In this document: positions 6,671 to 52,658 of the stretch, in pieces
How the letters are laid out: every line of letters starts with the position of its first letter
How positions within the stretch are numbered: position 1 is the stretch's first letter
Translations under genes and position numbers: made by a program
Source: Chloranthus sessilifolius
Taxonomy: Eukaryota; Streptophyta; Magnoliopsida; Chloranthales; Chloranthaceae
Direction of reading: 5' to 3'
Assembly: GCA_021018995.1 (NCBI GenBank)
Contig: CM037587.1
Coordinates: 88,223,251 to 88,287,250 of the forward strand
DNA length: 64,000 nucleotides
The notes under the pieces: model-generated
Databases searched by the model: none
What the model was told of the DNA's origin: nothing
Seen by the model: only the letters and a program-made list of their open reading frames with translations

Positions 6671-8599
6671 ATATTTGGTGTTCGAATAGCGTGATGAGAT
6701 TCGCCAAATCCATCACAAGAATACACAATCGGTTCGTTATACCTTGGAACCAGTTTGCCGGTAATCTATTGGTGACTACTTTTTCAAAGTGGTGGGGGGA
6801 AATATTAGTTTAAAGACAATGATATTTCTCGTGCCTCGGACCGGTTCCCTGTATTATTTTGGGTCAATATTTAATAATTTTTCCAATAATTTTAAACCAA
6901 TATTTATGTTAGCAAGTGTGTCGATGATTCGAGGGGCTCCACGTTTATCATGAAGTTCAATCAATGCACAGATTGAATTAATCATTGGGAATTTGAATTT
7001 GGAGAATCGGCTACAGACAATTGTAGGAGATGATGATGTGACTGCAATATCAGGCACTCTTTGAATTAAAAAATGGTATGCTTACTTTTAAATATTCAGT
7101 TACAGTTACAGGTGTCTCTCCAACCCAAGGATTTTGAATTGATGTGGCCATAGTGGCACCAATTTTATTTCTTCGTTATTTATCTATTCTAACTAATATA
7201 TAATGCTGCTCTAACCCTCGAAATGGGAATGTGTGAGTGTCTATACAACACCTGCACATGTGATAGTTGTGTGTGGGTAGGCATATCACGCACACGTGCA
7301 CTTGATGTAAGCCACTTATAAGAGATAGTTTATTATTATCATTTTCGAAATCACTTCGTACATACTTGTTATAAAAATGTGTATTATAATTATATGTTTT
7401 TCAATTATTTTATTTAGGGTGAGCCCATTGAACGAATTTTAGGTTAGCACGGGTTGGTATCGATGTTGGTTTGGGATCAAATTATTTTATTGATATTTCA
7501 TTAGTAAACACCAATTGGCATCTTTCTTGCCAAGGATTTTGGCACCAACTCATTCTTCAGTGATCATGTTTGTGCAACATTGATCAAGTGACAATTATTC
7601 CTTCTTTTTGGCAATAAATTAAAATATTGAAATTAAGTATCCACATAATGGGATGGGCGTGATTCATACGTCATTGCTATGTGTTTATGGTTGATTTGTG
7701 CTCAATCATTTGGGTGGTTTGATTGATCAGTTGATCAGGCCTCAATCATGCAGGAATTGAGTGCCCTTGATCAAGTTAGCATGGCTTGAAATCATTATCA
7801 ATGATTTGGCCATAAACTTTTGACAACATCGACTTGTTATGAAAAGATTGCTAGGATCATGTGGAGATGATCAAATAATTTTGCTTGAATATCTTAGAAA
7901 GATAATGGGTTTGGATTTGATAATCTAAATAATTTGAAGATGATATTCCTCTAATGATGGGTGTCTATAAATCGCATTGAATGCATTGCTTGAATGAAAA
8001 TAGGTAACGAAATGAAGTGGCGTAAGGTCCATTGGTAGACTTACCAATAAGATTAAGTCAAAACTTCTAAATTCTTTATGGAAGTTGTTTCCTTGTCAAT
8101 AAACAAGAAAACAAATGATATGTGATTTCCGGCAGAAATGTCTGAAAAAGTACTTTATGTATTGATAATTACAATTATGAGTAATTGTTTGATCAATGTT
8201 TAGGTTCAAAAGAAAGAACAAGTCGTAAATTCATGGCAGATAAAGGGGCACTATATTGATGAGAATTAAATTCTCATAAATATCCCAAGAAGCGTAATGT
8301 TTTTCATGTAATGGATATGGGGAGGTTGAACATTGCTCTTAATAGATGCTATAACACAATATGTTGAGATATTAAAGTTACAGGGGCATCTCTTATAGGT
8401 CTACCTATATAAGTGTGAGGGTGGAGCCGCCTTCAATGAGACATGAATTTATCTTATAAGCACTTATTAAAATCAGGATACTAACATATGGCCTAAATGT
8501 GCTAACCACTTTATTAAACATTAAATATATGAAATATGTGTATAGAATAGTTCTGATTTGTCGTATAAGATTGTTAGTTCAAGAGTTAGTTTTACTAAA
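6671..8599 (+). other. Element X internal region, non-coding
   Basis: The first 215 bp or so (to about 6888) match the 5' leader in every array unit. The rest to 8599 is found only here in the window. It is AT-rich, has no ORF longer than 70 codons, and contains a cluster of TGATCA palindromes (about 7555-8200). The stretch 8240-8560 ('ggatatggggaggttgaac', 'gagggtggagccgcc') is the least AT-rich part. I do not recognise it. Confidence 0.4.
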
Positions 8600-9889
8600 G
8601 ACCTTGGCAAACTTCGAGTTATTTCAACTAAACTGAAAAATTCAAGTCTGTAAGACATTTTAATTTATGCATTTATTTCTTGCTTTGCTCTGATTTCAAA
8701 AATTTTAAATAGTGGGGAATTGTTGGATATTTAAAACTTTTAAATAGTGGGTGATTGTTAGATATTTAAAAGTTTTATAATTTATGTCTTTTCAAAGTGG
8801 TGTGTTTTCAAAGAAGTGTCTTTTCAAAGTGGTTCGTCTTTTCAAAAGAAGTGTCTTTCCAAAGTGGTGTGTCTTTTCCGAAGGGATGCATGTAGCATCT
8901 TTTCATAAGAAAATGATGCATTAATACACCACTTGATTTCTATTTAAGGAATCTAAAACCACTGTTTTATACACCATAATAATCTTCTTTCTTCTCTCTT
9001 GTTATATCTTTAAAGGTCTTTATCAGAGCGTTCTTGTAATATTTGTCAGAGTGTTCTTGCTATATTTGGTGTTCGGATAGCATGATCAGATTTGCCAAAT
9101 CCTTCACAAGAATATAGAACCGATTCATTGTATCCTGGAACCGCTTTAGAACCTATTGGTGACCACTTTTGTCGAAGTGGTGGGGGCAAATATTGGTTTA
9201 AAGACAACGATATTTCTCGTGCCTCAGACCGGTTCCTTGTATTATTTCGGGTCAACATTCCAAAATTTTTCCAACACTAACCGTAGTCACCAAGTCGCAG
9301 TTCGGCAATAATTCAGCGAGCTTACAATTAGAAAAATCTGGCAAGTTCGGGGAAATATTCGGAGAGAAGAAATAAAAAAACAAAAAAAAAGATTTAAAAG
9401 TATAGAAAGTTTTTAAAATATTGTAAATCACAATTTTTTGAAAATTTTGGGAATTAGTCACGTATTTTGAAACATTCGTGAATAATTCGGGATTAATTAG
9501 CAGAACCTTAAATTCACAAATTATTTACAAATTTTCCAAAAAATCGGCGATTTTTGTTACTATAGTGCTAACATCATCACTTGTTATGTGATTACTAGCT
9601 CCCATGCCCGGATGCCAGTACTGCTCATATATAGGAGGATGAAATTGACATGAATGAGAATTCTCTACAAATTCAGATTGTTGAAAATTATTAGTTTTGT
9701 TGAACCTAAAAGTTAGGAAGGTTATAGTAATTTTGACAATAACATTTTGATGGCTGCATATTTGAGAAATCACCAGGGTGCCAAAGCACTTAAAACCCCA
9801 TGATTATTACAAATGTTCCTCATCCAAGGGAATTCATGTGATTGTTATGACCATGGCCTCGATATTTACCACGACCACGCCCTCGTTAT
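8600..9889 (+). repeat. First array unit (reference for unit anatomy)
   Basis: Parts: X 3' end 8600-8706 and polypurine tract 8707-8720; LTR 8721 to about 9060; X 5' leader about 9060-9273; AT-rich spacer of unknown origin about 9274-9553; inverted copia protease-to-gag fragment about 9554-9889. Relative to the single-copy LTR at 6350, the unit LTR carries an extra 23-bp direct duplication at about 9021-9066 (tcagagcgttcttg / tcagagtgttcttg). All array units examined share it. Confidence 0.8.
9554..9889 (-). mobile_element. Inverted Ty1/copia gag-protease fragment, repeated in every array unit
   Basis: On the minus strand the segment shows an Arg/Gly-rich stretch (RGRGRGKYRGHG-like), a zinc-knuckle-like SQIC segment and the copia protease-like string 'WHPGMGASNHITSD', in the gag-to-protease order of Ty1/copia. 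It is opposite in orientation to the element X LTR of the same unit. The same fragment recurs in all 27 units. In the last unit it joins the remaining 5' part of the copia element at 43187. It is a broken fossil fragment with no coding potential of its own. Confidence 0.65.
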
Positions 9890-12800
9890 GACCTTGGCAA
9901 ACTTCGAAGTTATTTCATCTAAACTGAAAAATTCAAGTCTGTAAGACATATTAATTTATGCACTTATTACTTGCTTTGCTCTGATTACAAAAATTTTAAA
10001 AAGTGCGGAACTATTGGATATTTAAAACTTTTAAATAGTGGGTGATTGTTAGATATTTAAAAGTTTTATAATTTATGTCTTTTCAAAGTGGTGTGTTTTC
10101 AAAGAAGTGTCTTTTCAAAGTGGTTCGTCTTTTCAAAAGAAGTGTCTTTCCAAAGTGGTGTGTCTTTTCCGAAGGGATGCATGTAGCATCTTTTCATAAG
10201 AAAATGATGCATTAATACACCACTTGATTTCTATTTAAGGAATCTAAAACCACTGTTTTATACACCATAATAATCTTCTTTCTTCTCTCTTGTTATATCT
10301 TTAAAGGTCTTTATCAGAGCGTTCTTGTAATATTTGTCAGAGTGTTCTTGCTATATTTGGTGTTCGGATAGCATGATCAGATTTGCCAAATCCTTCACAA
10401 GAATATAGAACCGATTCATTGTATCCTGGAACCCGGTTTGCTTTAACCTATTGGTGACCACTTTGTCGAAGTGGTGGGGGCAAATATTGGTTTAAAGACA
10501 ACGATATTTCTCGTGCCTCAGACCGGTTCCTTGTATTATTTCGGGTCAACATTCCAAAATTTTTCCAACACTAACCGTAGTCACCAAGTCGCAGTTCGGC
10601 AATAATTCAGCGAGCTTACAATTAGAAAAAATCAGCAAGTTCGGGAAATATTCGGAGAGAAGAAATAAAAAACAAAAAAGATTTAAAAGTATAGAAAGTT
10701 TTAAAATATTGTAAATCACAATTTTTTGAAAATTTTGGGAATTAGTCACGTATTTTTGAAACATTCGTGAATAATTCGGATTAATTAGCGTAACCTTAAA
10801 TTCACAAATTATTTACAAATTTTTCAAAAATCGGCGATTTTGTTACTATAGTGCTAACATCATCACTTGTTATGTGATTACTAGCTCCCATGCCCGGATG
10901 CCGCGATCTTGCTCATATATAGGAGGATGAAATTGACATGAATGAGAATTCTCTAAGCAAATCAGATTGTTGAAAATTATTAGTTTTGTTGAACCTAAAA
11001 GTTAGGAAGGTTATAGTAATTTTGACAATAACATTTTGATGGTCGCATATTTGAGAAATCACCGGTGCCAAAGCACTTAAAACCCCATGATTATTACAAA
11101 TGTTCCTCATCCAAGGGAATTCATGTGATTGTTATGACCATGGCCTCGATATTTACCACGCCCACGCCCTCGTTATGACCTTGGCAAACTTCGAGTTATT
11201 TCAACTAAATGAAAAATTCAAGTCTAAGACATTTTAATTTATGCATTTATTTCTTGCTTTGCTCTGATTTCAAAAATTTTAAATAGTGGGGAATTGTTGG
11301 ATATTTAAAACTTTTAAATAGTGGGTGATTGTTAGATATTTAAAAGTTTTATAATTTATGTCTTTTCAAAGTGGTGTGTTTTCAAAGAAGTGTCTTTTCA
11401 AAGTGGTTCGTCTTTTCAAAAGAAGTGTCTTTCCAAAGTGGTGTGTCTTTTAGAAGGATGCATGTAGCATCTTTTCATAAGAAAATGATGCATTAATACA
11501 CCACTTGATTTCTATTTAAGGAATCTAAAACCCGCTTTATACACCATAATAATCTTCTTTCTTCTCTCTTGTTATATCTTTAAAGGTCTTTATCAGAGCG
11601 TTCTTGTAATATTTGTCAGAGTGTTCTTGCTATATTTGGTGTTCGGATAGCATGATCAGATTTGCCAAATCCTTCACAAGAATATAGAACCGATTCATTG
11701 TATCCTGGAACCAGCTTTGGTGACCACTTTGTCGAAGTGGTGGGGGCAAATATTGGTTTAAAGACAACGATATTTCTCGTGCCTCAGACCGGTTCCTTGT
11801 ATTATTTCGGGTCAACATTCCAAAATTTTTCCAACACTAACCGTAGTCACCAAGTCGCAGTTCGGCAATAATTCAGCGAGCTTACAATTAGAAAAATCTG
11901 GCAAGTTCGGGGAAATATTCGGAGAGAAGAAATAAAAAAACAAAAAAAAAGATTTAAAAGTATAGAAAGTTTTTAAAATATTGTAAATCACAATTTTTTT
12001 GAAAATTTTGGGAATTAGTCACGTATTTTTGAAACATTCGTGAATAATTCGGGATTAATTAGCAGAACCTTAAATTCACAAATTATTTACAAATTTTTCA
12101 AAAATCTTTTTGTTACTATAGTGCTAACATCATCACTTGTTATGTGATTACTAGCTCCCATGCCGGGATGCCAGTACTGCTCATATATAGGAGGATGAAA
12201 TTGACATGAATGAGAATTCTCTAAGCAAATCAGATTGTTGAAAATTATTAGTTTTGTTGAACCTAAAAGTTAGGAAGGTTATAGTAATTTTGACAATAAC
12301 ATTTTGATGGCTGCATATTTGAGAAATCACCAGGGTGCCAAAGCACTTAAAACCCCATGATTATTACAAATGTTCCTCATCCAAGGGAATTCATGTGATT
12401 GTTATGACCATGGCCTCGATATTTACCACGCCCACGTCCTCGTTATGACCTTGGCAAACTTCGAGTTATTTCAACTAAACTGAAAAATTCAAGTCTGTAA
12501 GACATTTTAATTTATGCATTTATTTCTTGCTTTGCTCTGATTTCAAAAATTTTAAATAGTGGGGAATTGTTGGATATTTAAAACTTTTAAATAGTGGGTG
12601 ATTGTTAGATATTTAAAAGTTTTATAATTTATGTCTTTTCAAAGTGGTGTGTTTTCAAAGAAGTGTCTTTTCAAAGTGGTTCGTCTTTTCAAAAGAAGTG
12701 TCTTTCCAAAGTGGTGTGTCTTTTCAGAAGGGATGCATGTAGCATCTTTTCATAAGAAAATGATGCATTAATACACCACTTGATTTCTATTTAAGGAATC

Positions 12801-15800
12801 TAAAACCACTGTTTTATACACCATAATAATCTTCTTTCTTCTCTCTTGTTATATCTTTAAAGGTCTTTATCAGAGCTTTCTTGTAATATTTGTCAGAGTG
12901 TTCTTGCTATATTTGGTGTTGATAGCATGATCAGATTTGCCAAATCCTTCACAAGAATATAGACCCGATTCATTGTATCCTGGAACCAGTTTGCCGGTAA
13001 CCTATTGGTGACCACTTTGTCGAAGTGGTGGGGGCAAATATTGGTTTAAAGACAACGATATTTCTCGTGCCTCGAATCGGTTCCATGTATTATTTCGGGT
13101 CAACATTCCAAAATTTTTCCAACACTAACCGTAGTCACCAAGTCGCAGTGATTAATAATTCAAATGAGCTTACAATTAGAAAAATCTGGCAAGTTCGGGG
13201 AAATATTCGGAGAGAAGAAATAAAAAAACAAAAAAAAGATTTAAAAGTATAGAAAGTTTTTAAAATATTGTAAATCACAATTTTTGAAAATTTTGGGAAT
13301 TAGTCATTTTGAAACATTCGTGAATAATTCGGGATTAATAGCGTAACCTTAAATTCACAAATTATTTACAAATTTTTCAAAAATCGCGATTTTTGTTACT
13401 ATAGTGCTAACATCATCACTTGTTATGTGATTACTAGCTCCCATGCCCGGATGCCAGTACTGCTCATATATAGGAGGATGAAATTGACATGAATGAGAAT
13501 TCTCTAAGCAAATCAGATTGTTGAAAATTATTAGTTTTGTTGAACCTAAAAGTTAGGAAGGTTATAGTAATTTTGACAATAACATTTTGATGGCTGCATA
13601 TTTGAGAAATCACCAGGGTGCCAAAGCACTTAAAACCCCATGATTATTACAAATGTTCCTCATCCAAGGGAATTCATGTGATTGTTATGACCATGGCCTC
13701 GATATTTACCACGTCCACGCCCTCGTTATGACCTTGGCAAACTTGAGTTATTATTTCAACTAAATGAAAAATTCAAGTCTGTAAGACATTTTAATTTATG
13801 CATTTATTTCTTGCTTTGCTCGATTTCAAAAATTTTAAATAGTGGGAATTGTTGGATACTTAAAACTTTTAAATAGTGGGTGATTGTTAGATATTTAAAA
13901 GTTTTATAATTTATGTCTTTTCAAAGTGGTGTGTTTTCAAAGAAGTGTCTTTTCAAAGTGGTTCGTCTTTTCAAAAGAAGTGTCTTTCCAAAGTGGTGTG
14001 TCTTTTTCCGAAGGATGCATGTAGCATCTTTTCATAAGAAAATGATGCATTAATACACCACTTGATTTCTATTTAAGGAATCTAAAACCACGCTTTTATA
14101 CACCATAATAATCTTCTTTCTTCTCTTGTTATATCTTTAAAGGTCTTTATCGAGCGTTCTTGTAATATTTGTCGAGTGTTCTTGCTATATTTGGTGTTCG
14201 GATAGCATGATCGATTTGCCAAATCCTTCACAAGAATATAGAACCGATTCATTGTATCCACGGAACGTTTGCAGAACCTATTGGTGACCACTTTGTCAAG
14301 TGGTGGGGCAAATATTGGTTTAAAGACAACGATATTTCTCGCATCGGTTCCTTGTATTATTTCGGTCAACATTCCAAAATTTTTCCAACACTAACCGTAG
14401 TCACCAAGTCGCAATAATTCAAATGAGCTTACAATTAGAAAAATCGCAAGTTCGGGAAATATTCGGAGAGAAGAAATAAAAAACAAAAAAGATTTAAAAG
14501 TATAGAAAGTTTTAAAATATTGTAAATCACAATTTTTGAAAATTTTGGGAATTAGTCACGTATTTTTGAAACATTCGTGAATAATTCGGGATTAATTAGC
14601 GTAACCTTAAATTCACAAATTATTTACAAATTTTTCAAAAATCGGCGATTTTGTTACTATAGTGCTAACATCATCACTTGTTATGTGATTACTAGCTCCC
14701 ATGCGGATGCCAAGATCGCTCATATATAGGAGGATGAAATTGACATGAATGAGAATTCTCTAAGCAAATCGATTGTTGAAAATTATTAGTTTTGTTGAAC
14801 CTAAAAGTTAGGAAGGTTATAGTAATTTTGACAATAACATTTTGATGGTCTGCATATTTGAGAAATCACCGTGGTGCCAAAGCACTTAAAACCCCATGAT
14901 TATTACAAATGTTCCTCATCCAAGGGAATTCATGTGATTGTTATGACCATGGCCTCGATATTTACCACGTCCACGCCTCGTTATGACCTTGGCAAACTTC
15001 GAGTTATTTCAACTAAACCGAAAAAATTCAAGTCTGTAAGACATTTTAATTTATGCATTTATTTCTTGCTTTGCTCGATTTCAAAATTTTAAATAGTGGG
15101 GAATTGTTGGATATTTAAAACTTTTAAATAGTGGGTGATTGTTAGATATTTAAAAGTTTTATAATTTATGTCTTTTCAAAGTGGTGTGTTTTCAAAGAAG
15201 TGTCTTTTCAAAGTGGTTCGTCTTTTCAAAAGAAGTGTCTTTCCAAAGTGGTGTGTCTTTTCCGAAGGGATGCATGTAGCATCTTTTCATAAGAAAATGA
15301 TGCATTAATACACCACTTGATTTCTATTTAAGGAATCTAAAACCACTGTTTTATACACCATAATAATCTTCTTTCTTCTCTCTTGTTATATCTTTAAAGG
15401 TCTTTATCAGAGCGTTCTTGTAATATTTGTCAGAGTGTTCTTGCTATATTTGGTGTTCGGATAGCATGATCAGATTTGCCAAATCCTTCACAAGAATATA
15501 GAACCGATTCATTGTATCCTGGAACCAGTTTGCCGGTAACCTATTGGTGACCACTTTGTCGAAGTGGTGGGGGCAAATATTGGTTTAAAGACAACGATAT
15601 TTCTCGTGCCTCAGACCGGTTCCTTGTATTATTTCGGGTCAACATTCCAAAATTTTTCCAACACTAACCGTAGTCACCAAGTCGCAGTTCGGCAATAATT
15701 CAAATGAGCTTTCAATTAGAAAAATCTGGCAAGTTCGGGGAAATATTCGGAGAGAAGAAATAAAAAAACAAAAAAAAAGATTTAAAAGTATAGAAAGATT

Positions 15801-18800
15801 TTAAAATATTGTAAATCACAATTTTTTTGAAAATTTTGGGAATTAGTCACGTATTTTTGAAACATTCGTGAATAATTCGGGATTAATTAGCAGAACCTTA
15901 AATTCACAAATTATTTACAAATTTTTCAAAAAATCGGCGATTTTTGTTACTATAGTGCTAACATCATCACTTGTTATGTGATTACTAGCTCCCATGCCCG
16001 GATGCCAGTACTGCTCATATATAGGAGGATGAAATTGACATGAATGAGAATTCTCTAAGCAAATCGATTGTTGAAAATTATTAGTTTTGTTGAACCTAAA
16101 AGTTAGGAAGGTTATAGTAATTTTGACAATAACATTTTGATGGTCGCATATTTGAGAAATCACCAGGGTGCCAAAGCACTTAAAACCCCATGATTATTAC
16201 AAATGTTCCTCATCCAAGGGAATTCATGTGATTGTTATGACCATGGCCTCGATATTTACCACGTCCACGTCCTCGTTATGACCTTGGCAAACTTCGAGTT
16301 ATTTCAACTAAACTGAAAAATTCAAGTCTGTAAGACATTTTAATTTATGCATTTATTTCTTGCTTTGCTCTGATTTCAAAAATTTTAAATAGTGGGGAAT
16401 TGTTGGATATTTAAAACTTTTAAATAGTGGGTGATTGTTAGATATTTAAAAGTTTTATAATTTATGTCTTTTCAAAGTGGTGTGTTTTCAAAGAAGTGTC
16501 TTTTCAAAGTGGTTCGTCTTTTCAAAAGAAGTGTCTTTCCAAAGTGGTGTGTCTTTCAGAGGATGCATGTAGCATCTTTTCATAAGAAAATGATGCATTA
16601 ATACACCACTTGATTTCTATTTAAGGAATCTAAAACCACGCTTTTATACACCATAATAATCTTCTTTCTTCTCTTGTTATATCTTTAAAGGTCTTTATCG
16701 AGCGTTCTTGTAATATTTGTCGAGTGTTCTTGCTATATTTGGTGTTCGGATAGCATGATCGATTGCCAAATCCTTCACAAGAATATAGAACCGATTCATT
16801 GTATCCTCGGAACCGTTTGCGGTAACCTATTGGTGACCACTTTGTCAAGTGGTGGGGCAAATATTGGTTTAAAGACAACGATATTTCTCGTGCCTCGGAC
16901 CGGTTCCTTGTATTATTTGGTCAACATTCCAAAATTTTTCCAACACTAACAAGTAGTCACCAAGTCGCAGTCCAAATAATTCAATGAGCTTACAATTAGA
17001 AAAACAGCAAGTTCGGGGAAATATTCGGAGAGAAGAAATAAAAAAACAAAAAAAAAGATTTAAAAGTATAGAAAGTTTTTAAAATATTGTAAATCACAAT
17101 TTTTTTGAAAATTTTGGGAATTAGTCACGTATTTTTGAAACATTCGTGAATAATTCGGGATTAATTAGCGTAACCTTAAATTCACAAATTATTTACAAAT
17201 TTTTCAAAAATCGATTTTGTTACTATAGTGCTAACATCATCACTTGTTATGTGATTACTAGCACCCATGCCCGGATGCCAGTACTGCTCATATATAGGAG
17301 GATGAAATTGACATGAATGAGAATTCTCTAAGCAAATCAGATTGTTGAAAATTATTAGTTTTGTTGAACCTAAAAGTTAGGAAGGTTATAGTAATTTTGA
17401 CAATAACATTTTGATGGTGCATATTTGAGAAATCACCAGGTGCCAAAGCACTTAAAACCCCATGATTATTACAAATGTTCCTCATCCAAGGGAATTCATG
17501 TGATTGTTATGACCATGGCCCCGATATTTACCACGTCCACGCCCTCGTTATGACCTTGGCAAACTTCGAGTTATTTCAACTAAACTGAAAAATTCAAGTC
17601 TGTAAGACATTTTAATTTATGCATTTATTTCTTGCTTTGCTCTGATTTCAAAAATTTTAAATAGTGGGGAATTGTTGGATATTTAAAACTTTTAAATAGT
17701 GGGTGATTGTTAGATATTTAAAAGTTTTATAATTTATGTCTTTTCAAAGTGGTGTGTTTTCAAAGAAGTGTCTTTTCAAAGTGGTTCGTGTTTTCAAAAG
17801 AAGTGTCTTTCCAAAGTGGTGTGTCTTTTCCGAAGGGATGCATGTAGCATCTTTTCATAAGAAAATGATGCATTAATACACCACTTGATTTCTATTTAAG
17901 GAATCTAAAACCACTGTTTTATACACCATAATAATCTTCTTTCTTCTCTTGTTATATCTTTAAAGGTCTTTATCAGAGCGTTCTTGTAATATTTGTCAGA
18001 GTGTTCTTGCTATATTTGGTGTTCGGATAGCATGATCAGATTTGCCAAATCCTTCACAAGAATATAGAACCGATTCATTGTATCCTGGAACCAGTTTGCC
18101 GGTAACCTATTGGTGACCACTTTGTCGAAGTGGTGGGGGCAAATATTGGTTTAAAGACAACGATATTTCTCGTGCCTCAGACCGGTTCCTTGTATTATTT
18201 CGGGTCAACATTCCAAAATTTTTCCAACACTAACCGTAGTCACCAAGTCGCAGTTCGGCAATAATTCAGCGAGCTTACAATTAGAAAAATCTGGCAAGTT
18301 CGGGGAAATATTCGGAGAGAAGAAATAAAAAAACAAAAAAAAAGATTTAAAAGTATAGAAAGTTTTTAAAATATTGTAAATCACAATTTTTTTGAAAATT
18401 TTGGGAATTAGTCACGTATTTTTGAAACATTCGTGAATAATTCGGGATTAATTAGCAGAACCTTAAATTCACAAATTATTTACAAATTTTTCAAAAAATC
18501 GGCGATTTTTGTTACTATAGTGCTAACATCATCACTTGTTATGTGATTACTAGCTCCCATGCCCGGATGCCAGTACTGCTCATATATAGGAGGATGAAAT
18601 TGACATGAATGAGAATTCTCTAAGCAAATCAGATTGTTGAAAATTATTAGTTTTGTTGAACCTAAAAGTTAGGAAGGTTATAGTAATTTTGACAATAACA
18701 TTTTGATGGCTGCATATTTGAGAAATCACCAGGGTGCCAAAGCACTTAAAACCCCATGATTATTACAAATGTTCCTCATCCAAGGGAATTCATGTGATTG

Positions 18801-30800: not shown

Positions 30801-33800
30801 TCTTGCTATATTTGGTGTTCGGATAGCATGATCAGATTTGCCAAATCCTTCACAAGAATATAGAACCGATTCATTGTATCCTGGAACCAGTTTGCCGGTA
30901 ACCTATTGGTGACCACTTTGTCGAAGTGGTGGGGGCAAATATTGGTTTAAAGACAACGATATTTCTCGTGCCTCAGACCGGTTCCTTGTATTATTTCGGG
31001 TCAACATTCCAAAATTTTTCCAACACTAACCGTAGTCACCAAGTCGCAGTTCGGCAATAATTCAGCGAGCTTACAATTAGAAAAATCTGGCAAGTTCGGG
31101 GAAATATTCGGAGAGAAGAAATAAAAAACAAAAAAAGATTTAAAAGTATAGAAAGTTTTAAAATATTGTAAATCACAATTTTTTTGAAAATTTTGGGAAT
31201 TAGTCACGTATTTTTGAAACATTCGTGAATAATTCGGGATTAATTAGCAGAACCTTAAATTCACAAATTATTTACAAATTTTTCAAAAAATCGGCGATTT
31301 TTGTTACTATAGTGCTAACATCATCACTTGTTATGTGATTACTAGCTCCCATGCCCGGATGCCAAGATCTTTAGGAGGATGAAATTGACATGAATGAGAA
31401 TTCTAAGCAAACCGATTGTTGAAAATTATTAGTTTTGTTGAACCTAAAAGTTAGGAAGGTTATAGTAATTTTGACAATAACATTTTGATGGTGCATATTT
31501 GAGAAATCACCAGGGTGCCAAAGCACTTAAAACCCCATGATTATTACAAATGTTCCTCATCCAAGGGAATTCATGTGATTGTTATGACCATGGCCTCGAT
31601 ATTTACCACGTCCACGTCCTCGTTATGACCTTGGCAAACTTCGAGTTATTTCAACTAAACTGAAAAATTCAAGTCTGTAAGACATTTTAATTTATGCATT
31701 TATTTCTTGCTTTGCTCTGATTTCAAAAATTTTAAATAGTGGGGAATTGTTGGATATTTAAAACTTTTAAATAGTGGGTGATTGTTAGATATTTAAAAGT
31801 TTTATAATTTATGTCTTTTCAAAGTGGTGTGTTTTCAAAGAAGTGTCTTTTCAAAGTGGTTCGTCTTTTCAAAAGAAGTGTCTTTCCAAAGTGGTGTGTC
31901 TTTTCCGAAGGGATGCATGTAGCATCTTTTCATAAGAAAATGATGCATTAATACACCACTTGATTTCTATTTAAGGAATCTAAAACCACTGTTTTATACA
32001 CCATAATAATCTTCTTTCTTCTCTCTTGTTATATCTTTAAAGGTCTTTATCAGAGCGTTCTTGTAATATTTGTCAGAGTGTTCTTGCTATATTTGGTGTT
32101 CGGATAGCATGATCAGATTTGCCAAATCCTTCACAAGAATATAGAACCGATTCATTGTATCCTGGAACCAGCTTGTTGCGGTAACCTATTGGTGACCACT
32201 TTGTCAAGTGGTGGGGCAAATATTGGTTTAAAGACAACGATATTTCTCGTGCCTCGACCGGTTCCTTGTATTATTTGGTCAACATTCCAAAATTTTTCCA
32301 ACACTAACCGTAGTCACCAAGTCGCAGTTCGGCAATAATTCAGCGAGCTTACAATTAGAAAAATCTGGCAAGTTCGGGGAAATATTCGGAGAGAAGAAAT
32401 AAAAAAACAAAAAAAAAGATTTAAAAGTATAGAAAGTTTTTAAAATATTGTAAATCACAATTTTTTTGAAAATTTTGGGAATTAGTCACGTATTTTTGAA
32501 ACATTCGTGAATAATTCGGGATTAATTAGCAGAACCTTAAATTCACAAATTATTTACAAATTTTTCAAAAAATCGGCGATTTTTGTTACTATAGTGCTAA
32601 CATCATCACTTGTTATGTGATTACTAGCTCCCATGCCCGGATGCCAGTACTGCTCATATATAGGAGGATGAAATTGACATGAATGAGAATTCTCTAAGCA
32701 AATCAGATTGTTGAAAATTATTAGTTTTGTTGAACCTAAAAGTTAGGAAGGTTATAGTAATTTTGACAATAACATTTTGATGGCTGCATATTTGAGAAAT
32801 CACCAGGGTGCCAAAGCACTTAAAACCCCATGATTATTACAAATGTTCCTCATCCAAGGGAATTCATGTGATTGTTATGACCATGGCCTCGATATTTACC
32901 ACGTCCACGTCCTCGTTATGACCTTGGCAAACTTCGAGTTATTTCAACTAAACTGAAAAATTCAAGTCTGTAAGACATTTTAATTTATGCATTTATTTCT
33001 TGCTTTGCTCTGATTTCAAAAATTTTAAATAGTGGGGAATTGTTGGATATTTAAAACTTTTAAATAGTGGGTGATTGTTAGATATTTAAAAGTTTTATAA
33101 TTTATGTCTTTTCAAAGTGGTGTGTTTTCAAAGAAGTGTCTTTTCAAAGTGGTTCGTCTTTTCAAAAGAAGTGTCTTTCCAAAGTGGTGTGTCTTTTCCG
33201 AAGGGATGCATGTAGCATCTTTTCATAAGAAAATGATGCATTAATACACCACTTGATTTCTATTTAAGGAATCTAAAACCACTGTTTTATACACCATAAT
33301 AATCTTCTTTCTTCTCTCTTGTTATATCTTTAAAGGTCTTTATCAGAGCGTTCTTGTAATATTTGTCAGAGTGTTCTTGCTATATTTGGTGTTCGGATAG
33401 CATGATCAGATTTGCCAAATCCTTCACAAGAATATAGAACCGATTCATTGTATCCTGGAACCAGTTTGCCGGTAACCTATTGGTGACCACTTTGTCGAAG
33501 TGGTGGGGGCAAATATTGGTTTAAAGACAACGATATTTCTCGTGCCTCAGACCGGTTCCTTGTATTATTTCGGGTCAACATTCCAAAATTTTTCCAACAC
33601 TAACCGTAGTCACCAAGTCGCAGTTCGGCAATAATAATTGCTTACAATTAGAAAAAATCTGGCAAGTTCGGGGAAATATTCGGAGAGAAGAAATAAAAAA
33701 ACAAAAAAAAAGATTTAAAAGTATAGAAAGTTTTTAAAATATTGTAAATCACAATTTTTTTGAAAATTTTGGGAATTAGTCACGTATTTTTGAAACATTC

Positions 33801-36800
33801 GTGAATAATTCGGGATTAATTAGCAGAACCTTAAATTCACAAATTATTTACAAATTTTTCAAAAATCGATTTTGTTACTATAGTGCTAACATCATCACTT
33901 GTTATGTGATTACTAGCTCCCATGCCCGGATGCCGATCGCTTCATATATTGGAGGATGAAATTGACATGAATGAGAATTCTCTAAGCAAATCAGATTGTT
34001 GAAAATTATTAGTTTTGTTGAACCTAAAAGTTAGGAAGGTTATAGTAATTTTGACAATAACATTTTGATGGCTGCATATTTGAGAAATCACCAGGGTGCC
34101 AAAGCACTTAAAACCCCATGATTATTACAAATGTTCCTCATCCAAGGGAATTCATGTGATTGTTATGACCATGGCCTCGATATTTACCACGTCCACGTCC
34201 TCGTTATGACCTTGGCAAACTTCGAGTTATTTCAACTAAAGCTGAAAAATTCAAGTCAGAAGACATTTTAATTTATGCATTTATTTCTTGCTTTGCTCGA
34301 TTTCATAAATTTTAAATAGTGGGGAATTGTTGGATATTTAAAACTTTTAAATAGTGGGTGATTGTTAGATATTTAAAAGTTTTATAATTTATGTCTTTTC
34401 AAAGTGGTGTGTTTTCAAAGAAGTGTCTTTTCAAAGTGGTTCGTCTTTTCAAAAGAAGTGTCTTTCCAAAGTGGTGTGTCTTTTCCGAAGGGATGCATGT
34501 AGCATCTTTTCATAAGAAAATGATGCATTAATACACCACTTGATTTCTATTTAAGGAATCTAAAACCACTGTTTTATACACCATAATAATCTTCTTTCTT
34601 CTCTCTTGTTATATGTTTAAAGGTCTTTATCAGGCGTTCTTGTAATATTTGTCGAGTGTTCTTGCTATATTTGGTGTTGGATAGCATGATCAGTTGCCAA
34701 ATCCTTCACAAGAATATAGAACCGATTCATTGTATCCTGGAACCGGTTTGCTGGTGACCACTTTGTCAAGTGGTGGGGGCAAATATTGGTTTAAAGACAA
34801 CGATATTTCTCGTGCCTCAGACCGGTTCCTTGTATTATTTCGGGTCAACATTCCAAAATTTTTCCAACACTAACCGTAGTCACCAAGTCGCAGTTCGGCA
34901 ATAATTCAAATGAGCTTACAATTAGAAAAATGCAAGTTCTGGGAAATATTCGAGAGAAGAAATAAAAAAACAAAAAAAAAGATTTAAAAGTATAGAAAGT
35001 TTTTAAAATATTGTAAATCACAATTTTTTTGAAAATTTTGGGAATTAGTCACGTATTTTTGAAACATTCGTGAATAATTCGGGATTAATTAGCAGAACCT
35101 TAAATTCACAAATTATTTACAAATTTTTCAAAAATCGCGATTTTTGTTACTATAGTGCTAACATCATCACTTGTTATGTGATTACTAGCTCCCATGCCCG
35201 GATGCCAGTACTGCTCATATATAGGAGGATGAAATTGACATGAATGAGAATTCTCTAAGCAAATCAGATTGTTGAAAATTATTAGTTTTGTTGAACCTAA
35301 AAGTTAGGAAGGTTATAGTAATTTTGACAATAACATTTTGATGGCTGCATATTTGAGAAATCACCAGGGTGCCAAAGCACTTAAAACCCCATGATTATTA
35401 CAAATGTTCCTCATCCAAGGGAATTCATGTGATTGTTATGACCATGGCCTCGATATTTACCACGTCCACGTCCTCGTTATGACCTTGGCAAACTTCGAGT
35501 TATTTCAACTAAACTGAAAAATTCAAGTCTGTAAGACATTTTAATTTATGCATTTATTTCTTGCTTTGCTCTGATTTCAAAAATTTTAAATAGTGGGGAA
35601 TTGTTGGATATTTAAAACTTTTAAATAGTGGGTGATTGTTAGATATTTAAAAGTTTTATAATTTATGTCTTTCAAAGTGGTGTGTTTTCAAAGAAGTGTC
35701 TTTTCAAAGTGGTTCGTCTTTTCAAAGAAGTGTCTTTCCAAAGTGGTGTGTCTTTTCCGAAGGATGCATGTAGCATCTTTTCATAAGAAAATGATGCATT
35801 AATACACTTGATTTCTATTTAAGGAATCTAAAACCACTGTTTTATACACCATAATAATCTTCTTTCTTCTCTCTTGTTATATCTTTAAAGGTCTTTATCA
35901 GAGCGTTCTTGTAATATTTGTCAGAGTGTTCTTGCTATATTTGGTGTTCGGATAGCATGATCAGATTTGCCAAATCCTTCACAAGAATATAGAACCGATT
36001 CATTGTATCCTGGAACCAGTTTGCCGGTAACCTATTGGTGACCACTTTGTCGAAGTGGTGGGGGCAAATATTGGTTTAAAGACAACGATATTTCTCGTGC
36101 CTCAGACCGGTTCCTTGTATTATTTCGGGTCAACATTCCAAAATTTTTCCAACACTAACCGTAGTCACCAAGTCGCAGTTCGGCAATAATTCAGCGAGCT
36201 TACAATTAGAAAAATCTGGCAAGTTCGGGGAAATATTCGGAGAGAAGAAATAAAAAAACAAAAAAAAAGATTTAAAAGTATAGAAAGTTTTTAAATATTG
36301 TAAATCACAATTTTTTGAAAATTTTGGGAATTAGTCACGTATTTTTGAAACATTCGTGAATAATTCGGGATTAATTAGCAGAACCTTAAATTCACAAATT
36401 ATTTACAAATTTTTCAAAAAATCGGCGATTTTTGTTACTATAGTGCTAACATCATCACTTGTTATGTGATTACTAGCTCCCATGCCCGGATGCCAGTACT
36501 GCTCATATATAGGAGGATGAAATTGACATGAATGAGAATTCTCTAAGCAAATCAGATTGTTGAAAATTATTAGTTTTGTTGAACCTAAAAGTTAGGAAGG
36601 TTATAGTAATTTTGACAATAACATTTTGATGGCTGCATATTTGAGAAATCACCAGGGTGCCAAAGCACTTAAAACCCCATGATTATTACAAATGTTCCTC
36701 ATCCAAGGGAATTCATGTGATTGTTATGACCATGGCCTCGATATTTACCACGTCCACGTCCTCGTTATGACCTTGGCAAACTTCGAGTTATTTCAACTAA

Positions 36801-39800
36801 ACTGAAAAATTCAAGTCTGTAAGACATTTTAATTTATGCATTTATTTCTTGCTTTGCTCTGATTTCAAAAATTTTAAATAGTGGGGAATTGTTGGATATT
36901 TAAAACTTTTAAATAGTGGGTGATTGTTAGATATTTAAAAGTTTTATAATTTATGTCTTTTCAAAGTGGTGTGTTTTCAAAGAAGTGTCTTTTCAAAGTG
37001 GTTCGTCTTTTCAAAAGAAGTGTCTTTCCAAAGTGGTGTGTCTTTTCCGAAGGGATGCATGTAGCATCTTTTCATAAGAAAATGATGCATTAATACACCA
37101 CTTGATTTCTATTTAAGGAATCTAAAACCACTGTTTTATACACCATAATAATCTTCTTTCTTCTCTCTTGTTATATCTTTAAAGCTCTTTATCGTAGGCG
37201 TTCTTGTAATATTTGTCGAGTGTTCTTGCTATATTTGGTGTTCGGATAGCATGATCAGTTGCCAAATCCTGGACAAGAATATAGAACCGATTCCTTGTAT
37301 CCTGGAACCAGTTTGCCGGTACCCTAGTGGTGACCACGTTGCCGGAGTGGTGGGGGCAAATATTGGTTTAAAGACAACGATATTTCTGGTGCCTCGCACG
37401 TTCCTTGTATTATTTCGGTCAACATTCCAAATTTTTCCAACACTAACCGTAGTCACCAAGTCGCTTCGGCAATAATTCAAATGAGCTTACAATTAGAAAA
37501 ATCGCAAGTTCGGGAAATATTCGAGAGAAGAAATAAAAAACAAAAAAAGATTTAAAAGTATAGAAAGTTTTAAAATATTGTAAATCACAATTTTTTGAAA
37601 ATTTTGGGAATTAGTCACGTATTTTTGAAACATTCGTGAATAATTCGGGATTAATTAGCGTAACCTTAAATTCACAAATTATTTACAAATTTTTCAAAAA
37701 TCGGCGATTTTGTTACTATATAGTGCTAACATCATCACTTGTTATGTGATTACTAGCTCCCATGGGATGCCGATCTTGCTCATATATAGGAGGATGAAAT
37801 TGACATGAATGAGAATTCTCTAAGCAAATCAGTTGTTGAAAATTATTAGTTTTGTTGAACCTAAAAGTTAGGAAGGTTATAGTAATTTTGACAATAACAT
37901 TTTGATGGTGCATATTTGAGAAATCACCGTGGTGCCAAAGCACTTAAAACCCCATGATTATTACAAATGTTCCTCATCCAAGGGAATTCATGTGATTGTT
38001 ATGACCATGGCCTCGATATTTACCACGTCCACGTCCTCGTTATGACCTTGGCAAACTTCGAGTTATTTCAACTAAACTGAAAATTCAAGTCTGTAAGACA
38101 TTTTAATTTATGCATTTATTTCTTGCTTTGCTCTGATTTCAAAAATTTTAAATAGTGGGGAATTGTTGGATATTTAAAACTTTTAAATAGTGGGTGATTG
38201 TTAGATATTTAAAAGTTTTATAATTTATGTCTTTTCAAAGTGGTGTGTTTTCAAAGAAGTGTCTTTTCAAAGTGGTTCGTCTTTTCAAAAGAAGTGTCTT
38301 TCCAAAGTGGTGTGTCTTTTCCGAAGGGATGCATGTAGCATCTTTTCATAAGAAAATGATGCATTAATACACCACTTGATTTCTATTTAAGGAATCTAAA
38401 ACCACCGCTTTTTTACACCATAATAATTCTTTCTTCTCTCTTGTTATATCTTTAAAGGTCTTTATCGAGCGTTCTTGTAATATTTGTCGAGTGTTCTTGC
38501 TATATTTGGTGTTCGGATAGCATGATCGATTTTACAAATCCTTCACAAGAATATAGAACCCATTCATTGTATCCACGAACCGGTTTGCGGTAACCTATTG
38601 GTGACCACTTTGTCGAAGTGGTGGGGCAAATATTGGTTTAAAGACAACGATATTTCTCGTGCCTCGGACGGTTCCTTGTATTATTTCGGGCCAACATTCC
38701 AAAATTTTTCCAACACTACCCGTAGCCACCAAGTCGCAGTTCGGCAATAATCCAGCGAGCTTACAATTAGAAAAATCTGGCAAGTTCGGGGAAATATTCG
38801 GAGAGAAGAAATAAAAAAACAAAAAAAAAGATTTAAAAGTATAGAAAGTTTTTAAAATATTGTAAATCACAATTTTTTTGAAAATTTTGGGAATTAGTCA
38901 CGTATTTTTGATACATTCGTGAATAATTCGGGATTAATTAGCGTAACCTTAAATTCACAAATTATTTATAAATTTTTCAAAAATCGGCATTTTGTTACTA
39001 TAGTGCTAACATCATCACTTGTTATGTGATTACTAGCTCCATGCCCTGGATGCGATCATGCTCATATATAGGAGGATGAAATTGACATGAATGAGAATTC
39101 TCTAAGCAAACCGATTGTTGAAAATTATTAGTTTTGTTGAACCTAAAAGTTAGGAAGGTTATAGTAATTTTGACAATAACATTTTGATGGTGCATATTTG
39201 AGAAATCACCAGGGTGCCAAAGCACTTAAAACCCCATGATTATTACAAATGTTCCTCATCCAAGGGAATTCATGTGATTGTTATGACCATGGCCTCGATA
39301 TTTACCACGTCCACGTCCTCGTTATGACCTTGGCAAACTTCGAGTTATTTCAACTAAACTGAAAAATTCAAGTCTGTAAGACATTTTAATTTATGCATTT
39401 ATTTCTTGCTTTGCTCTGATTTCAAAAATTTTAAATAGTGGGGAATTGTTGGATATTTAAAACTTTTAAATAGTGGGTGATTGTTAGATATTTAAAAGTT
39501 TTATAATTTATGTCTTTTCAAAGTGGTGTGTTTTCAAAGAAGTGTCTTTTCAAAGTGGTTCGTCTTTTCAAAAGAAGTGTCTTTCCAAAGTGGTGTGTCT
39601 TTTCCGAAGGGATGCATGTAGCATCTTTTCATAAGAAAATGATGCATTAATACACCACTTGATTTCTATTTAAGGAATCTAAAACCACTGTTTTATACAC
39701 CATAATAATCTTCTTTCTTCTCTCTTGTTATATCTTTAAAGGTCTTTATCAGAGCGTTCTTGTAATATTTGTCAGAGTGTTCTTGCTATATTTGGTGTTC

Positions 39801-41890
39801 GGATAGCATGATCAGATTTGCCAAATCCTTCACAAGAATATAGAACCGATTCATTGTATCCTGGAACCAGTTTGCCGGTAACCTATTGGTGACCACTTTG
39901 TCGAAGTGGTGGGGGCAAATATTGGTTTAAAGACAACGATATTTCTCGTGCCTCAGACCGGTTCCTTGTATTATTTCGGGTCAACATTCCAAAATTTTTC
40001 CAACACTAACTAGTAGTCACCAAGTCGCAGCTCGGCAATAATTCAAATGAGCTTACAATTAGAAAAATCGCAAGTTCGGGAAATATCGAGAGAAGAAATA
40101 AAAAACAAAAAAAGATTTAAAAGTATAGAAAGTTTTAAAATATTGTAAATCACAATTTTTTGAAAATTTTGGGATTTAGTCACGTATTTTTGAAACATTC
40201 GTGAATAATTCGGGATTAATTAGCAGAACCTTAAATTCACAAATTATTTACAAATTTTTCAAAAAATCGGCGATTTTTGTTACTATAGTGCTAACATCAT
40301 CACTTGTTATGTGATTACTAGCTCCCATGCCCGGATGCCAGTACTGCTCATATATAGGAGGATGAAATTGACATGAATGGGAATTCTCTAAGCAAATCGA
40401 TTGTTGAAAATTATTAGTTTTGTTGAACCTAAAAGTTAGGAAGGTTATAGTAATTTTGACAATAACATTTTGATGGTCTGCATATTTGAGAAATCACCAG
40501 GTGCCAAAGCACTTAAAACCCCATGATTATTACAAATGTTCCTCATCCAAGGAATTCATGTGATTGTTATGACCATGGCCTCGATATTTACCACGCCCAC
40601 GTCCTCGTTATGACCTTGGCAAACTTCGAGTTATTTCAACTAAACTGAAAAATTCAAGTCTGTAAGACATTTTAATTTATGCATTTATTTCTTGCTTTGC
40701 TCGATTTCAAAATTTTAAATAGTGGGAATTGTTGGATATTTAAAACTTTTAAATAGTGGGTGATTGTTAGATATTTAAAAGTTTTATAATTTATGTCTTT
40801 TCAAAGTGGTGTGTTTTCAAAGAAGTGTCTTTTCAAAGTGGTTCGCCTTTTCAAAAGAAGTGTCTTTCCAAAGTGGTGTGTCTTTTCGAAGGATGCATGT
40901 AGCATCTTTTCATAAGAAAATGATGCATTAATACACCACTTGATTTCTATTTAAGGAATCTAAAACCCGCTTTATACACCATAATAATCTTCTTTCTTCT
41001 CTTGTTATATCTTTAAAGGTCTTTATCGTAGCGTTCTTGTAATATTTGTCGAGTGTTCTTGCTATATTTGGTGTTGGATAGCATGATCAGATTTGCCAAA
41101 TCCTTCACAAGAATATAGAACCGATTCATTGTATCCGGAACCGGTTTGCGGTAACCTATTGGTGACCACTTTGTCGAAGTGGTGGGGCAAATATTGGTTT
41201 AAAGACAACGATATTTCTCCTCAGACCGGTTCCTTGTATTATTTCGGGTCAACATTCCAAAATTTTTCCAACACTAACCGTAGTCACCAAGTCGCAGTTC
41301 GGCAATAATTCAGCGAGCTTACAATTAGAAAAATCTGGCAAGTTCGGGGAAATATTCGGAGAGAAGAAATAAAAAAACAAAAAAAAAGAATAAAAAGTAT
41401 AGAAAGGTTTAAAAATATTGTAAATCACAATTTTTTTGAAAATTTTGGGAATTAGTCACGTATTTTTGAAACATTCGTGAATAATTCGGGATTAATTAGC
41501 AGAACCTTAAATTCACAAATTATTTACAAATTTTTCAAAAAATCGGCGATTTTTGTTACTATAGTGCTAACATCATCACTTGTTATGTGATTACTAGCTC
41601 CCATGCCCGGATGCCAGTACTGCTCATATATAGGAGGATGAAATTGACATGAATGAGAATTCTCTAAGCAAATCAGATTGTTGAAAATTATTAGTTTTGT
41701 TGAACCTAAAAGTTAGGAAGGTTATAGTAATTTTGACAATAACATTTTGATGGTCTGCATATTTGAGAAATCACCGTGTGTGCCAAAGCACTTAAAACCC
41801 CATGATTATTACAAATGTTCCTCATCCAAGGAATTCATGTGATTGTTATGACCATGGCCTCGATATTTACCACGTCCACGTCCTCGTTAT

Positions 41891-43186
41891 GACCTTGGCA
41901 AACTTCGAGTTATTTCAACTAAACGAAAATTCAAGTCTAAGACATTTTAATTTATGCATTTATTTCTTGCTTTGCTCGATTTCAAAATTTTAAATAGTGG
42001 GGAATTGTTGGATATTTAAAACTTTTAAATAGTGGGTGATTGTTAGATATTTAAAAGTTTTATAATTTATGTCTTTCAAAGTGGTGTGTTTTCAAAGAAG
42101 TGTCTTTTCAAAGTGGTTCGTCTTTTCAAAAGAAGTGTCTTTCCAAAGTGGTGTGTCTTTTCCAAGGATGCATGTAGCATCTTTTCATAAGAAAATGATG
42201 CATTAATACACCACTTGATTTCTATTTAAGGAATCTAAAACCACTTTATACACCATAATAATCTTCTTTCTTCTCTCTTGTTATATCTTTAAAGGTCTTT
42301 ATCGTGAGCGTTCTTGTAATATTTGTCAGAGTGTTCTTGCTATATTTGGTGTTCGGATAGCATGATCAGATTTGCCAAATCCTTCACAAGAATATAGAAC
42401 CGATTCATTGTATCCTGGAACCAGTTTGCCGGTAACCTATTGGTGACCACTTTGTCGAAGTGGTGGGGGCAAATATTGGTTTAAAGACAACGATATTTCT
42501 CGTGCCTCAGACCGGTTCCTTGTATTATTTCGGGTCAACATTCCAAAATTTTTCCAACACTAACCGTAGTCACCAAGTCGCAGTTCGGCAATAATTCAGC
42601 GAGCTTACAATTAGAAAAATCTGGGCAAGTTCGGGGAAATATTCGGAGAGAAGAAATAAAAAAACAAAAAAAAAGATTTAAAAGTATAGAAAGTTTTTAA
42701 AATATTGTAAATCACAATTTTTTTGAAAATTTTGGGAATTAGTCACGTATTTTTGAAACATTCGTGAATAATTCGGGATTAATTAGCAGAACCTTAAATT
42801 CACAAATTATTTACAAATTTTTCAAAAAATCGGCGATTTTTGTTACTATAGTGCTAACATCATCACTTGTTATGTGATTACTAGCTCCCATGCCCGGATG
42901 CCAGTACTGCTCATATATAGGAGGATGAAATTGACATGAATGAGAATTCTCTAAGCAAATCAGATTGTTGAAAATTATTAGTTTTGTTGAACCTAAAAGT
43001 TAGGAAGGTTATAGTAATTTTGACAATAACATTTTGATGGCTGCATATTTGAGAAATCACCAGGGTGCCAAAGCACTTAAAACCCCATGATTATTACAAA
43101 TGTTCCTCATCCAAGGGAATTCATGTGATTGTTATGACCATGGCCTCGATATTTACCACGTCCACGTCCACGTCCTCGTTATGACC
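41891..43186 (+). repeat. Last array unit, with extra hexamer at its right edge
   Basis: This unit has the full length of 1,296 bp. It differs from the others in carrying one more 'tccacg' hexamer (three 'ccacgt' steps at 43156-43173) just before the terminal GACC at 43183-43186. The flanking sequence then continues 'atggctcgattaga' into copia gag rather than 'ttggcaaacttcg' into another unit. Confidence 0.8.
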
Positions 43187-43884
43187 ATGGCTCGATTAGA
43201 GTAAAAGGAAGTGGATGTTCAGTGGTGATCACTGATTTCGGATTAAGGTTCTCAAGAAAGCTTCTTGATCAAGTAGAAAATTGGGAATTTCTTACTTGTT
43301 TTTATTAGTTATGGTTGTCACAAACAGTGGATGCTCGATAGAGAGGACACTCATGCAGTTTTAGACGAGTTCCTTATAAGGGACATAATCATCGGCCACT
43401 TGAAGAGAATCAGCAAGATTCCTGACATGATTGAGATACAGAGCTATTTCTTGATCGGGTGTCTTCTTGATGGGTTAGAAGTGATGAAGAATGAGACGAA
43501 TAGGCATGCTCTATTGCCAACCATGCATCTCGAGCAGGAAGACGAATGATTTGTCCAAGAACAAATTTGGTCACTGCTGCCTTAATCCAACTGAGTGCAA
43601 GTTGATCGACTCTTTTCCAAGTTATGTAGGCAGGGTAGAACTTGGTACGTAGTGGGAGTCACTTTCATCAATTAGGTCTTTTGAAGAATTGGGATTTCGC
43701 CATGTTAGATCAATGAACATATTGAATGAGATCTCGTTGTACATGACTTGTTCAATTTGATATTTCCACAAGAGTATTTAGTTCGACCGAGCTTGATTTA
43801 TACAAGGATTTGAAAAGGTCCCAGTGAGTCGATGAAGAAGAAGCCATAACAGATGAGTAGAAAAAGATAAATGAACAAATGTAC

Positions 43885-43895: not shown

Positions 43896-43904
43896 TAAGA
43901 GGTT

Positions 43905-52656: not shown

Positions 52657-52658
52657 AC

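What the first reader, a model, noticed from the sequence alone, without database searches (positions are those of the whole stretch)
8600..43186. A 27-unit, 34.6-kb satellite-like array whose unit is a chimera of two retroelements in opposite orientation
Each 1.28-kb unit joins the 3' end, LTR and 5' leader of one short LTR element (plus strand) to an AT-rich spacer and an inverted gag/protease fragment of a Ty1/copia element (minus strand). Tandem arrays of short LTR elements sharing LTRs are known in plants, but a unit combining an LTR with an inverted coding fragment of a different element is unusual. The array is a whole number of units in one orientation. It may be a satellite caught early, still beside its parent sequences.
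Basis: seen in the sequence. Interest (0 to 1): 0.82.

Follow-up and report, generated by a model that had tools for sequence, protein, structure and literature searches.

The report
Newborn satellite from nested dead transposons
In a plant chromosome, a 1.3-kb stretch cut across three mobile elements nested inside one another has been copied 27 times in a row at the spot where it arose, so both its source sequences and the join that started it can still be read.

Summary
The array is real: 27 head-to-tail units of ~1.28 kb at 8604-43186, one orientation; the MITE-copia part of the unit was found full length only here in the 2.17-Gb assembly. Both parent breakpoints carry GACC, so the unit most likely arose in place by a microhomology-sized tandem duplication and was then amplified. 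Most differences between units look like sequencing error: they cluster at CAG/CTG sites (156 of 486 cells) as length-changing or CG-containing calls, as expected if methylated plant DNA was mis-basecalled. At clean sites base substitutions from consensus are ~0.2%, against ~9% between the parent's LTRs, so amplification is recent. TE-derived and composite satellites are known; one with its nesting history and founding junction in place is a useful variant, not a new kind.

The parts
6130..6349 (-). Left remnant of the old copia element (protease region beyond the MITE insertion point); 6342-6349 = left copy of the MITE's 8-bp duplication GTGCTAAC
   Evidence: With the LTR element and the MITE left out, one frame runs through the join (WHPGMGASNHITSDDVS/TTNKIDYQGKDSTTIGNGQVLQLQM). 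The motif match is by eye and recalled; Pfam, blastp and the protein database gave nothing significant; no other copy of this stretch found in the assembly.
6345..6349 (.). Left target-site duplication CTAAC of LTR element A
   Evidence: the same 5 bp follow the 3' LTR at 9277-9281
6350..6888 (+). 5' LTR of element A (539 bp)
   Evidence: family copies elsewhere in the assembly; of 8 family rows aligned, 6 begin with TG at this point and 6 end in AACA
6889..8720 (+). Internal region of element A (1.83 kb, no coding domain found), ending in a polypurine tract; its last 117 bp (8604-8720) are the start of unit 1
   Evidence: 6 of the 7 family loci L002-L008 have this interior next to the LTR; 4 short ORFs overlapping it gave no Pfam family (only these of the ORFs were tested)
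8604..43186 (+). Tandem array, 27 units of 1255-1298 bp
8721..9276 (+). 3' LTR of element A (unit 1 copy; consensus unit 118-676)
9277..9281 (.). Right target duplication CTAAC of element A (unit 1 copy)
   Evidence: CCAACACTAAC exact in 26 of 27 units, 27 of 27 with up to 2 edits
9282..9564 (.).
   Evidence: 12 other places at 74-79% identity match this segment alone; 7 of those 12 were fetched and aligned and show terminal inverted repeats and 8-bp duplications
9565..9572 (.). Right copy of the MITE's 8-bp duplication GTGCTAAC (unit 1)
   Evidence: GTGCTAACATC exact 27 times in the array, one per unit
9573..9893 (-). Copia gag/protease fragment (unit 1 copy)
   Evidence: RGRGRG and WHPGMGASNHITSD motifs read on the minus strand of the last unit; related copia at C9:87701424-87701784
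8600..8603 (.). GACC at the left breakpoint; the same 4 bases end the last unit (43183-43186)
   Evidence: Identical 4 bp at both parent breakpoints, none beyond
43187..43905 (-). Unamplified continuation of the copia gag to its primer-binding site (43884-43895)
   Evidence: Two gag pieces joined with X match Retrotran_gag_2, E=3.8e-4, below Pfam's cut-off; PBS one substitution from GCTCTGATACCA

Best explanation
A nascent satellite made in place. An old copia element (minus strand) received a hAT-like MITE; a 2.93-kb non-autonomous LTR element then inserted in the MITE's left target duplication. Much later one 1.28-kb slice, from the last 117 bp of the LTR element's interior to the copia gag, was duplicated in tandem by joining at GACC (microhomology-mediated repair or template switching). 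Once two copies existed, homology-based events (unequal sister-chromatid exchange, or replication-based copying) raised the number to 27. Shown: the nested stack, the breakpoints, one locus in the searches made, near-identity of units. Inferred: the repair pathway and the mode of expansion.
For: Left flank and unit 1 are contiguous inside one LTR element whose other LTR and CTAAC duplication lie outside the array. The last unit is contiguous with copia gag on the right. MITE: dispersed family, 8-bp duplication intact on both sides of the stack. One frame runs through the site when LTR element and MITE are left out. GACC at both breakpoints; 2.0% of 200,000 random junctions share 4 or more bases. 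Full-length MITE+copia only in the 27 units. 22 array-side and 20 5'-LTR-side private substitutions against 34 base substitutions in 27 x 613 clean cells between units and consensus: amplification came after nearly all of the parent's decay.
Against: Four bases of microhomology are weak alone. Assignment of the left remnant (6130-6349) to copia rests on frame continuity and motifs read by eye; database searches were negative and no other copy was found. Similarity between units does not depend on their distance (Spearman 0.07, p=0.19), so unequal exchange is not positively supported; with so few real differences it could hardly be.
Confidence: 0.88

Rival explanations
1. A circle was cut out of this locus by joining at GACC, copied by rolling circle, and the concatemer put back at the same place by homology.
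For: Gives the same junctions and would explain the near-identity of units and the lack of distance structure.
Against: Needs two extra steps; no trace distinguishes it here.
Confidence: 0.2
2. The array is real but its length in the assembly is wrong (collapsed or expanded by the assembler).
For: Units are near identical and appear unpolished: 156 of 486 CAG/CTG cells deviate, so consensus quality inside the array is poor.
Against: Units carry different error patterns, and the two ends are distinct (unit 27 alone has an extra CGTCCA), so it is not a pasted copy of one unit.
Confidence: 0.25
3. The chimeric unit was first formed as a mobile element (recombinant RNA packaged and reverse transcribed) and then arrayed.
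For: Recombinant LTR elements exist (maize CRM1 and CRM4, passage in PMC3648361).
Against: Both duplications (CTAAC, GTGCTAAC) are in register with an in-place nested stack; unit ends match the flanks on both sides; no dispersed chimeric copy among the matches.
Confidence: 0.03
4. The differences between units are true mutations of an old, evolving satellite.
For: CG and CAG/CTG are methylation sites and mutate fast; in the gypsy LTR pair of this window CWG triplets also differ more (11 of 43) than triplets far from such sites (81 of 914; kinds of change not examined).
Against: In nine dispersed LTR copies 11 of 14 CWG changes are simple transitions and 1 changes length; in the array only 10 of 156 are such transitions, 81 change length and 88 deviant forms contain CG. 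At 613 clean positions base substitutions are about 0.2%, all deviations about 0.5%.
Confidence: 0.06

Closest known systems
Composite satellite monomers from 'TE graveyards' (PMC12628747, section 5 read)
   Same: Monomer holds pieces of several transposable elements from a nested, decayed stretch that was then tandemised; the authors propose a scenario of this kind and call the origin of such monomers an open question.
   Different: [quoted passage not shown] here all three elements, their insertion order and the founding junction can be read at the locus. Not seen beyond one locus.
Sobo satellite of a wild potato (Tek et al. 2005; paper not held; known here from a passage in PMC3648361)
   Same: Long monomer with LTR similarity in a pericentromeric block; 'recently amplified' by its title.
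   Different: 4.7-kb monomer in ~360 kb there; 1.28 kb in 34.6 kb here, with MITE and inverted copia parts.
CRM1TR / CRM4TR of maize (PMC3648361, passages)
   Same: Tandem repeats from an LTR-UTR region; illegitimate recombination proposed as first step.
   Different: Derived from centromeric retrotransposons alone; the short direct repeats needed for a one-step junction were not found there, while 4 bp are present here.
Tandem LTR-element arrays such as Cassandra (PMC7215508, passages)
   Same: LTRs in tandem.
   Different: Those alternate LTR and internal domain; here the unit has only 117 bp of interior and two foreign pieces. The Cassandra-like form does occur for this LTR family at L009.
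Satellites expanded from tandem repeats inside LTR retrotransposons, Lathyrus (PMC7004042, abstract)
   Same: LTR-retrotransposon origin.
   Different: There short arrays lie inside the retrotransposons; here the array grew across element borders after insertion.

Membership tests
Satellite DNA | Long head-to-tail array of near-identical units | tested here: met
   27 units
Satellite DNA | Abundant, many arrays or very large heterochromatic blocks | tested here: not met
   One locus of 34.6 kb among the matches in the assembly; so 'nascent satellite' or large tandem repeat, not a mature satellite
Composite TE-derived satellite (PMC12628747) | Monomer with segments of several TEs | tested here: met
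   LTR element, MITE, copia
Composite TE-derived satellite (PMC12628747) | Later propagation in the genome | tested here: not met
Non-autonomous LTR retrotransposon (element A) | LTR pair, inverted ends, 5-bp duplication | tested here: met
   TGTTGGA..TCCAACA in the 3' copy, TATTGGA..TCCAATA in the 5' copy, CTAAC
Non-autonomous LTR retrotransposon (element A) | tRNA primer-binding site after the 5' LTR | tested here: not met
   No match to TGGTATCAGAGC within 2 substitutions after 6888; other tRNAs not tested; element decayed
hAT-like MITE (element S) | Short dispersed element with terminal inverted repeats | tested here: met
   287-305 bp in the 7 copies aligned of 12 found, CATAGTCACC..GTGACTATG
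hAT-like MITE (element S) | 8-bp target duplication | tested here: met
   8 of 8 in 3 of 7 copies (L030 after a 2-base shift of one end), 7 of 8 in 2 of 7, 5 and 6 of 8 (after shifts) in 2 of 7; 8 of 8 in the window
hAT-like MITE (element S) | Mobilised by a hAT transposase | not tested
   No autonomous partner was sought; the superfamily name rests on recalled traits
Ty1/copia | Copia gag and initiator-Met PBS | tested here: inconclusive
   Retrotran_gag_2 E=3.8e-4, 20.4 bits against cut-off 27; PBS at 43884-43895 one substitution from the pattern

The most novel reading that the evidence does not exclude
Because every unit places an LTR (reading rightwards) in front of an inverted gag/protease fragment, the array would, if transcribed, make antisense RNA to a copia element 27 times over: a newly formed silencing locus built by chance from the debris of the element it targets. 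The CAG/CTG miscalls, if they do mark CHG methylation, would fit a locus under RNA-directed silencing. Against it: only one other copy of this copia was found in the assembly, so there may be little left to silence.
Probability: 0.04. Interest if true: 0.8.

Novelty: new variant of a known kind. Interest (0 to 1): 0.5.

Why it matters
How satellites are born is usually inferred from mature arrays whose origin is erased. Here the nested insertions, both target duplications, the founding breakpoint and the amplified product lie on one contig, so the order of events and the size of the founding homology can be read, and copy number at this locus can be tracked in relatives. It is a worked case of the kind of scenario that a 2025 review put forward for an open question (PMC12628747). 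It also suggests how methylation-linked miscalls can pass for satellite divergence and distort age estimates.

Tried and rejected
I first thought the spacer might be a CACTA element (CACTA..TAGTG near its edges); the family alignment put the ends elsewhere and gave 8-bp duplications. I thought the short junction pattern was specific: of 32 matches with up to 1 mismatch, 25 are array junctions (of 26 internal ones) and 7 lie elsewhere; the 4 of those 7 that I fetched (L013-L016) are interior 3' ends of related LTR elements. Distance structure among units: none. Protein searches with one gag piece and with the joined protease piece: no candidates; Pfam on the protease pieces: nothing significant; blastp against the copia proteins listed, best E 0.51. 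Left remnant 6130-6349 elsewhere in the genome: only itself. L033, the one other copia copy, gave no match to the region that would prove the join. The LTR/MITE junction pattern was asked and never answered. Paper searches on nanopore errors at CHG sites: no listed title or abstract states the CAG/CTG effect; PMC9749173 (passages) says methylation differences likely reduce basecalling accuracy and has no hit for CHG, CAG or CTG. So nanopore and methylation as the source are my inference.

Full report
WHAT IS THERE. The window lies at 88.2 Mb of a 168-Mb contig of a 2.17-Gb assembly in 32 contigs. An integrase ORF of another copia element in it is most like plant proteins (named hits among the first 33 rows, 51-61% identity, from Acer, Aristolochia and Prunus), so the host is a flowering plant; I did not identify it further. 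The array runs from 8604 to 43186: 27 units, 1255-1298 bp, one orientation, consensus 1295 bp.

THE NESTED STACK. Leftwards from the array the first unit runs on into a complete LTR element A: 5' LTR 6350-6888, interior to 8720, 3' LTR 8721-9276, with CTAAC before the 5' LTR and after the 3' LTR. Its LTR family is dispersed: 42 LTR places, whole or partial, 76-89% identity, one of them the window's own 5' LTR, were listed (39 of 5242 candidates scored, the array itself not listed, so a lower bound). Of the seven family loci L002-L008, six have the interior next to the LTR and one shows only the LTR within its 3.5 kb (L003 and L005 belong to one tandem locus, L009). Searched against the assembly, spacer plus copia gave 42 matches: 27 full-length places, all units of this array; 12 places with the spacer alone, with 2 secondary pieces at two of them; and one with the copia part alone (40 of 2643 candidates scored). 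Seven of the 12 spacer places were fetched and aligned. They share ends CATAGTCACC..GTGACTATG, and their flanks carry 8-bp duplications: 8 of 8 in three (one after a 2-base shift), 7 of 8 in two, 5 and 6 of 8 in two. It is a hAT-like MITE (the name rests on recalled superfamily traits). In the window its duplication GTGCTAAC stands at 6342-6349, outside A, and right of the MITE in all 27 units. A's own duplication CTAAC is the last five bases of GTGCTAAC, so A inserted at the MITE's left edge.

The rest of each unit, and about 720 bp beyond the last unit, is a copia element on the minus strand: PBS 43884-43895, gag (Retrotran_gag_2, E=3.8e-4 on two pieces joined with X, below the curated cut-off), RGRGRG and WHPGMGASNHITSD. 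If A and the MITE are left out, one frame continues into TTNKIDYQGKDSTTIGNGQVLQLQM left of A. This looks like the copia protease region by recalled motif; every database test of it was negative or not significant, and no other copy of 6130-6349 was found. The only other copy of this copia found is at C9:87701175-87701784 (all 28 candidates scored).

THE FOUNDING JUNCTION. Left parent ...ACTAAAGACC|TTGGCAAAC, unit junction ...TTATGACC|TTGGCAAAC, right parent ...TTATGACC|ATGGCTCG. Exactly four bases, GACC, are shared; random pairs of positions in the flanks share four or more in 2.0% of 200,000 draws. The unit is thus a tandem duplication of the stretch between two GACC sites of the stack. Other copies of A differ in the bases just before GACC, so the ancestral homology could have been slightly different.

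VARIATION BETWEEN UNITS. 939 deviating cells were counted against the consensus. 494 lie near CAG/CTG sites (18% of positions), 256 near CG only (16%), 102 in homopolymers only (18%) and 87 in the remaining 47%. I counted one further CTG site, hidden by an ambiguous alignment column near consensus 1156, as 'near CAG/CTG' after seeing the data; it is not among the 18 sites tested. All 18 CAG/CTG sites of the consensus deviate in 5 to 13 of 27 units; the mean, 0.321, is reached by 0 of 1275 circular shifts (null mean 0.053, maximum 0.156). Typical changes are CAG>CG, CTG>C, CAG>CGT. As a control, nine dispersed LTR copies (the window's 5' LTR and eight rows from L002-L009; array consensus dropped) have 14 of 36 CWG cells changed, 11 of them simple transitions, one a length change, two forms containing CG. 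The array has 10 simple transitions, 81 length changes and 88 CG-containing forms among 156. Real decay of methylated DNA gives transitions, so the array pattern is best read as basecalling error at methylated CHG sites in a region that could not be polished. The platform, the methylation and the polishing failure are inferred. Against a purely array-bound effect: in the gypsy LTR pair of this window CWG triplets also differ more often, 11 of 43 against 81 of 914 far triplets, with the kinds of change not examined. At 613 clean positions the units show 34 base substitutions from consensus, about 0.2%, with units 2 and 23 holding 12 of them; with gaps, 87 cells or about 0.5%. Units 1 and 27 differ at 20 of 1277 aligned bases over all sites.

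AGE. A's two LTRs differ at 46 of 530 ungapped sites, with 35 gap columns. With eight family rows as reference, at sites where at least six agree, 20 changes are private to the 5' LTR and 22 to the array consensus. So the array-side LTR had collected nearly all its changes before amplification. No date in years is given because species and rate are unknown.

HOW IT WORKS. Best reading: nested insertion, decay, microhomology-sized tandem duplication, then homology-driven growth. Unequal exchange and rolling-circle return cannot be told apart: similarity does not depend on distance (Spearman 0.07, p=0.19). Nothing points to a function; the antisense reading is stated as the novel case only.

COMPARISON. 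TE-derived satellites, LTR-derived tandem repeats and composite monomers are all known (PMC3648361, PMC9659126 and PMC7215508, passages; PMC12628747, passages and section 5; PMC7004042, abstract). PMC12628747 says the origin of composite monomers is open and proposes a course of this kind. In the library searched the titles and abstract openings listed showed no case with three parents and the founding junction still in place; that is a statement about those listings only.

Noticed in passing
L009 2817-7972 (C7:55750500-55760400): The same LTR family forms a three-LTR, two-interior tandem element, the Cassandra-like arrangement.
   Followed up: partly
window 9894-10020 (unit 2): Unit 2 has ten differences from unit 22 in the first 130 alignment columns, and no other unit has a clean-site substitution in consensus positions 1-119; possible conversion from another copy or local misassembly.
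   Followed up: partly
window, unit ends 9880-43186: In the CACGTCCACGTCC stretch, 9 of units 1-10 carry a C (or A) variant against 1 of units 11-27 (unit 25; unit 13 has another change), and unit 27 alone has an extra CGTCCA: edge units may be less homogenised.
   Followed up: no
window 55082-64000 and L012: A copia element with LTRs at 55082 and 63860 (95% identical over 669 aligned bases) and, after its RNase H region, an extra sense ORF at 62386-63309 matching Transposase_32 (E=3.7e-10, 40.4 bits against Pfam's cut-off 45).
   Followed up: partly
window 1109-5637: Two adjacent ~2.28-kb direct repeats, 85% identical, with only 2 bases between them, just left of the nested stack.
   Followed up: no
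window 44771-54971: A Ty3/gypsy-type element on the minus strand with 2.3-kb LTRs 95.8% identical at ungapped sites (RNase H domain).
   Followed up: no
window 5784-6128: An abundant dispersed repeat (40 of 1085 candidates scored) abuts the left copia remnant.
   Followed up: no
element A LTR, 6350-6400 and 8721-8771: The LTR begins with what looks like an old polypurine tract and a second TGTTAGATATT start ~35 bp inside, as if the LTR had been lengthened by priming at an upstream tract (read by eye).
   Followed up: no
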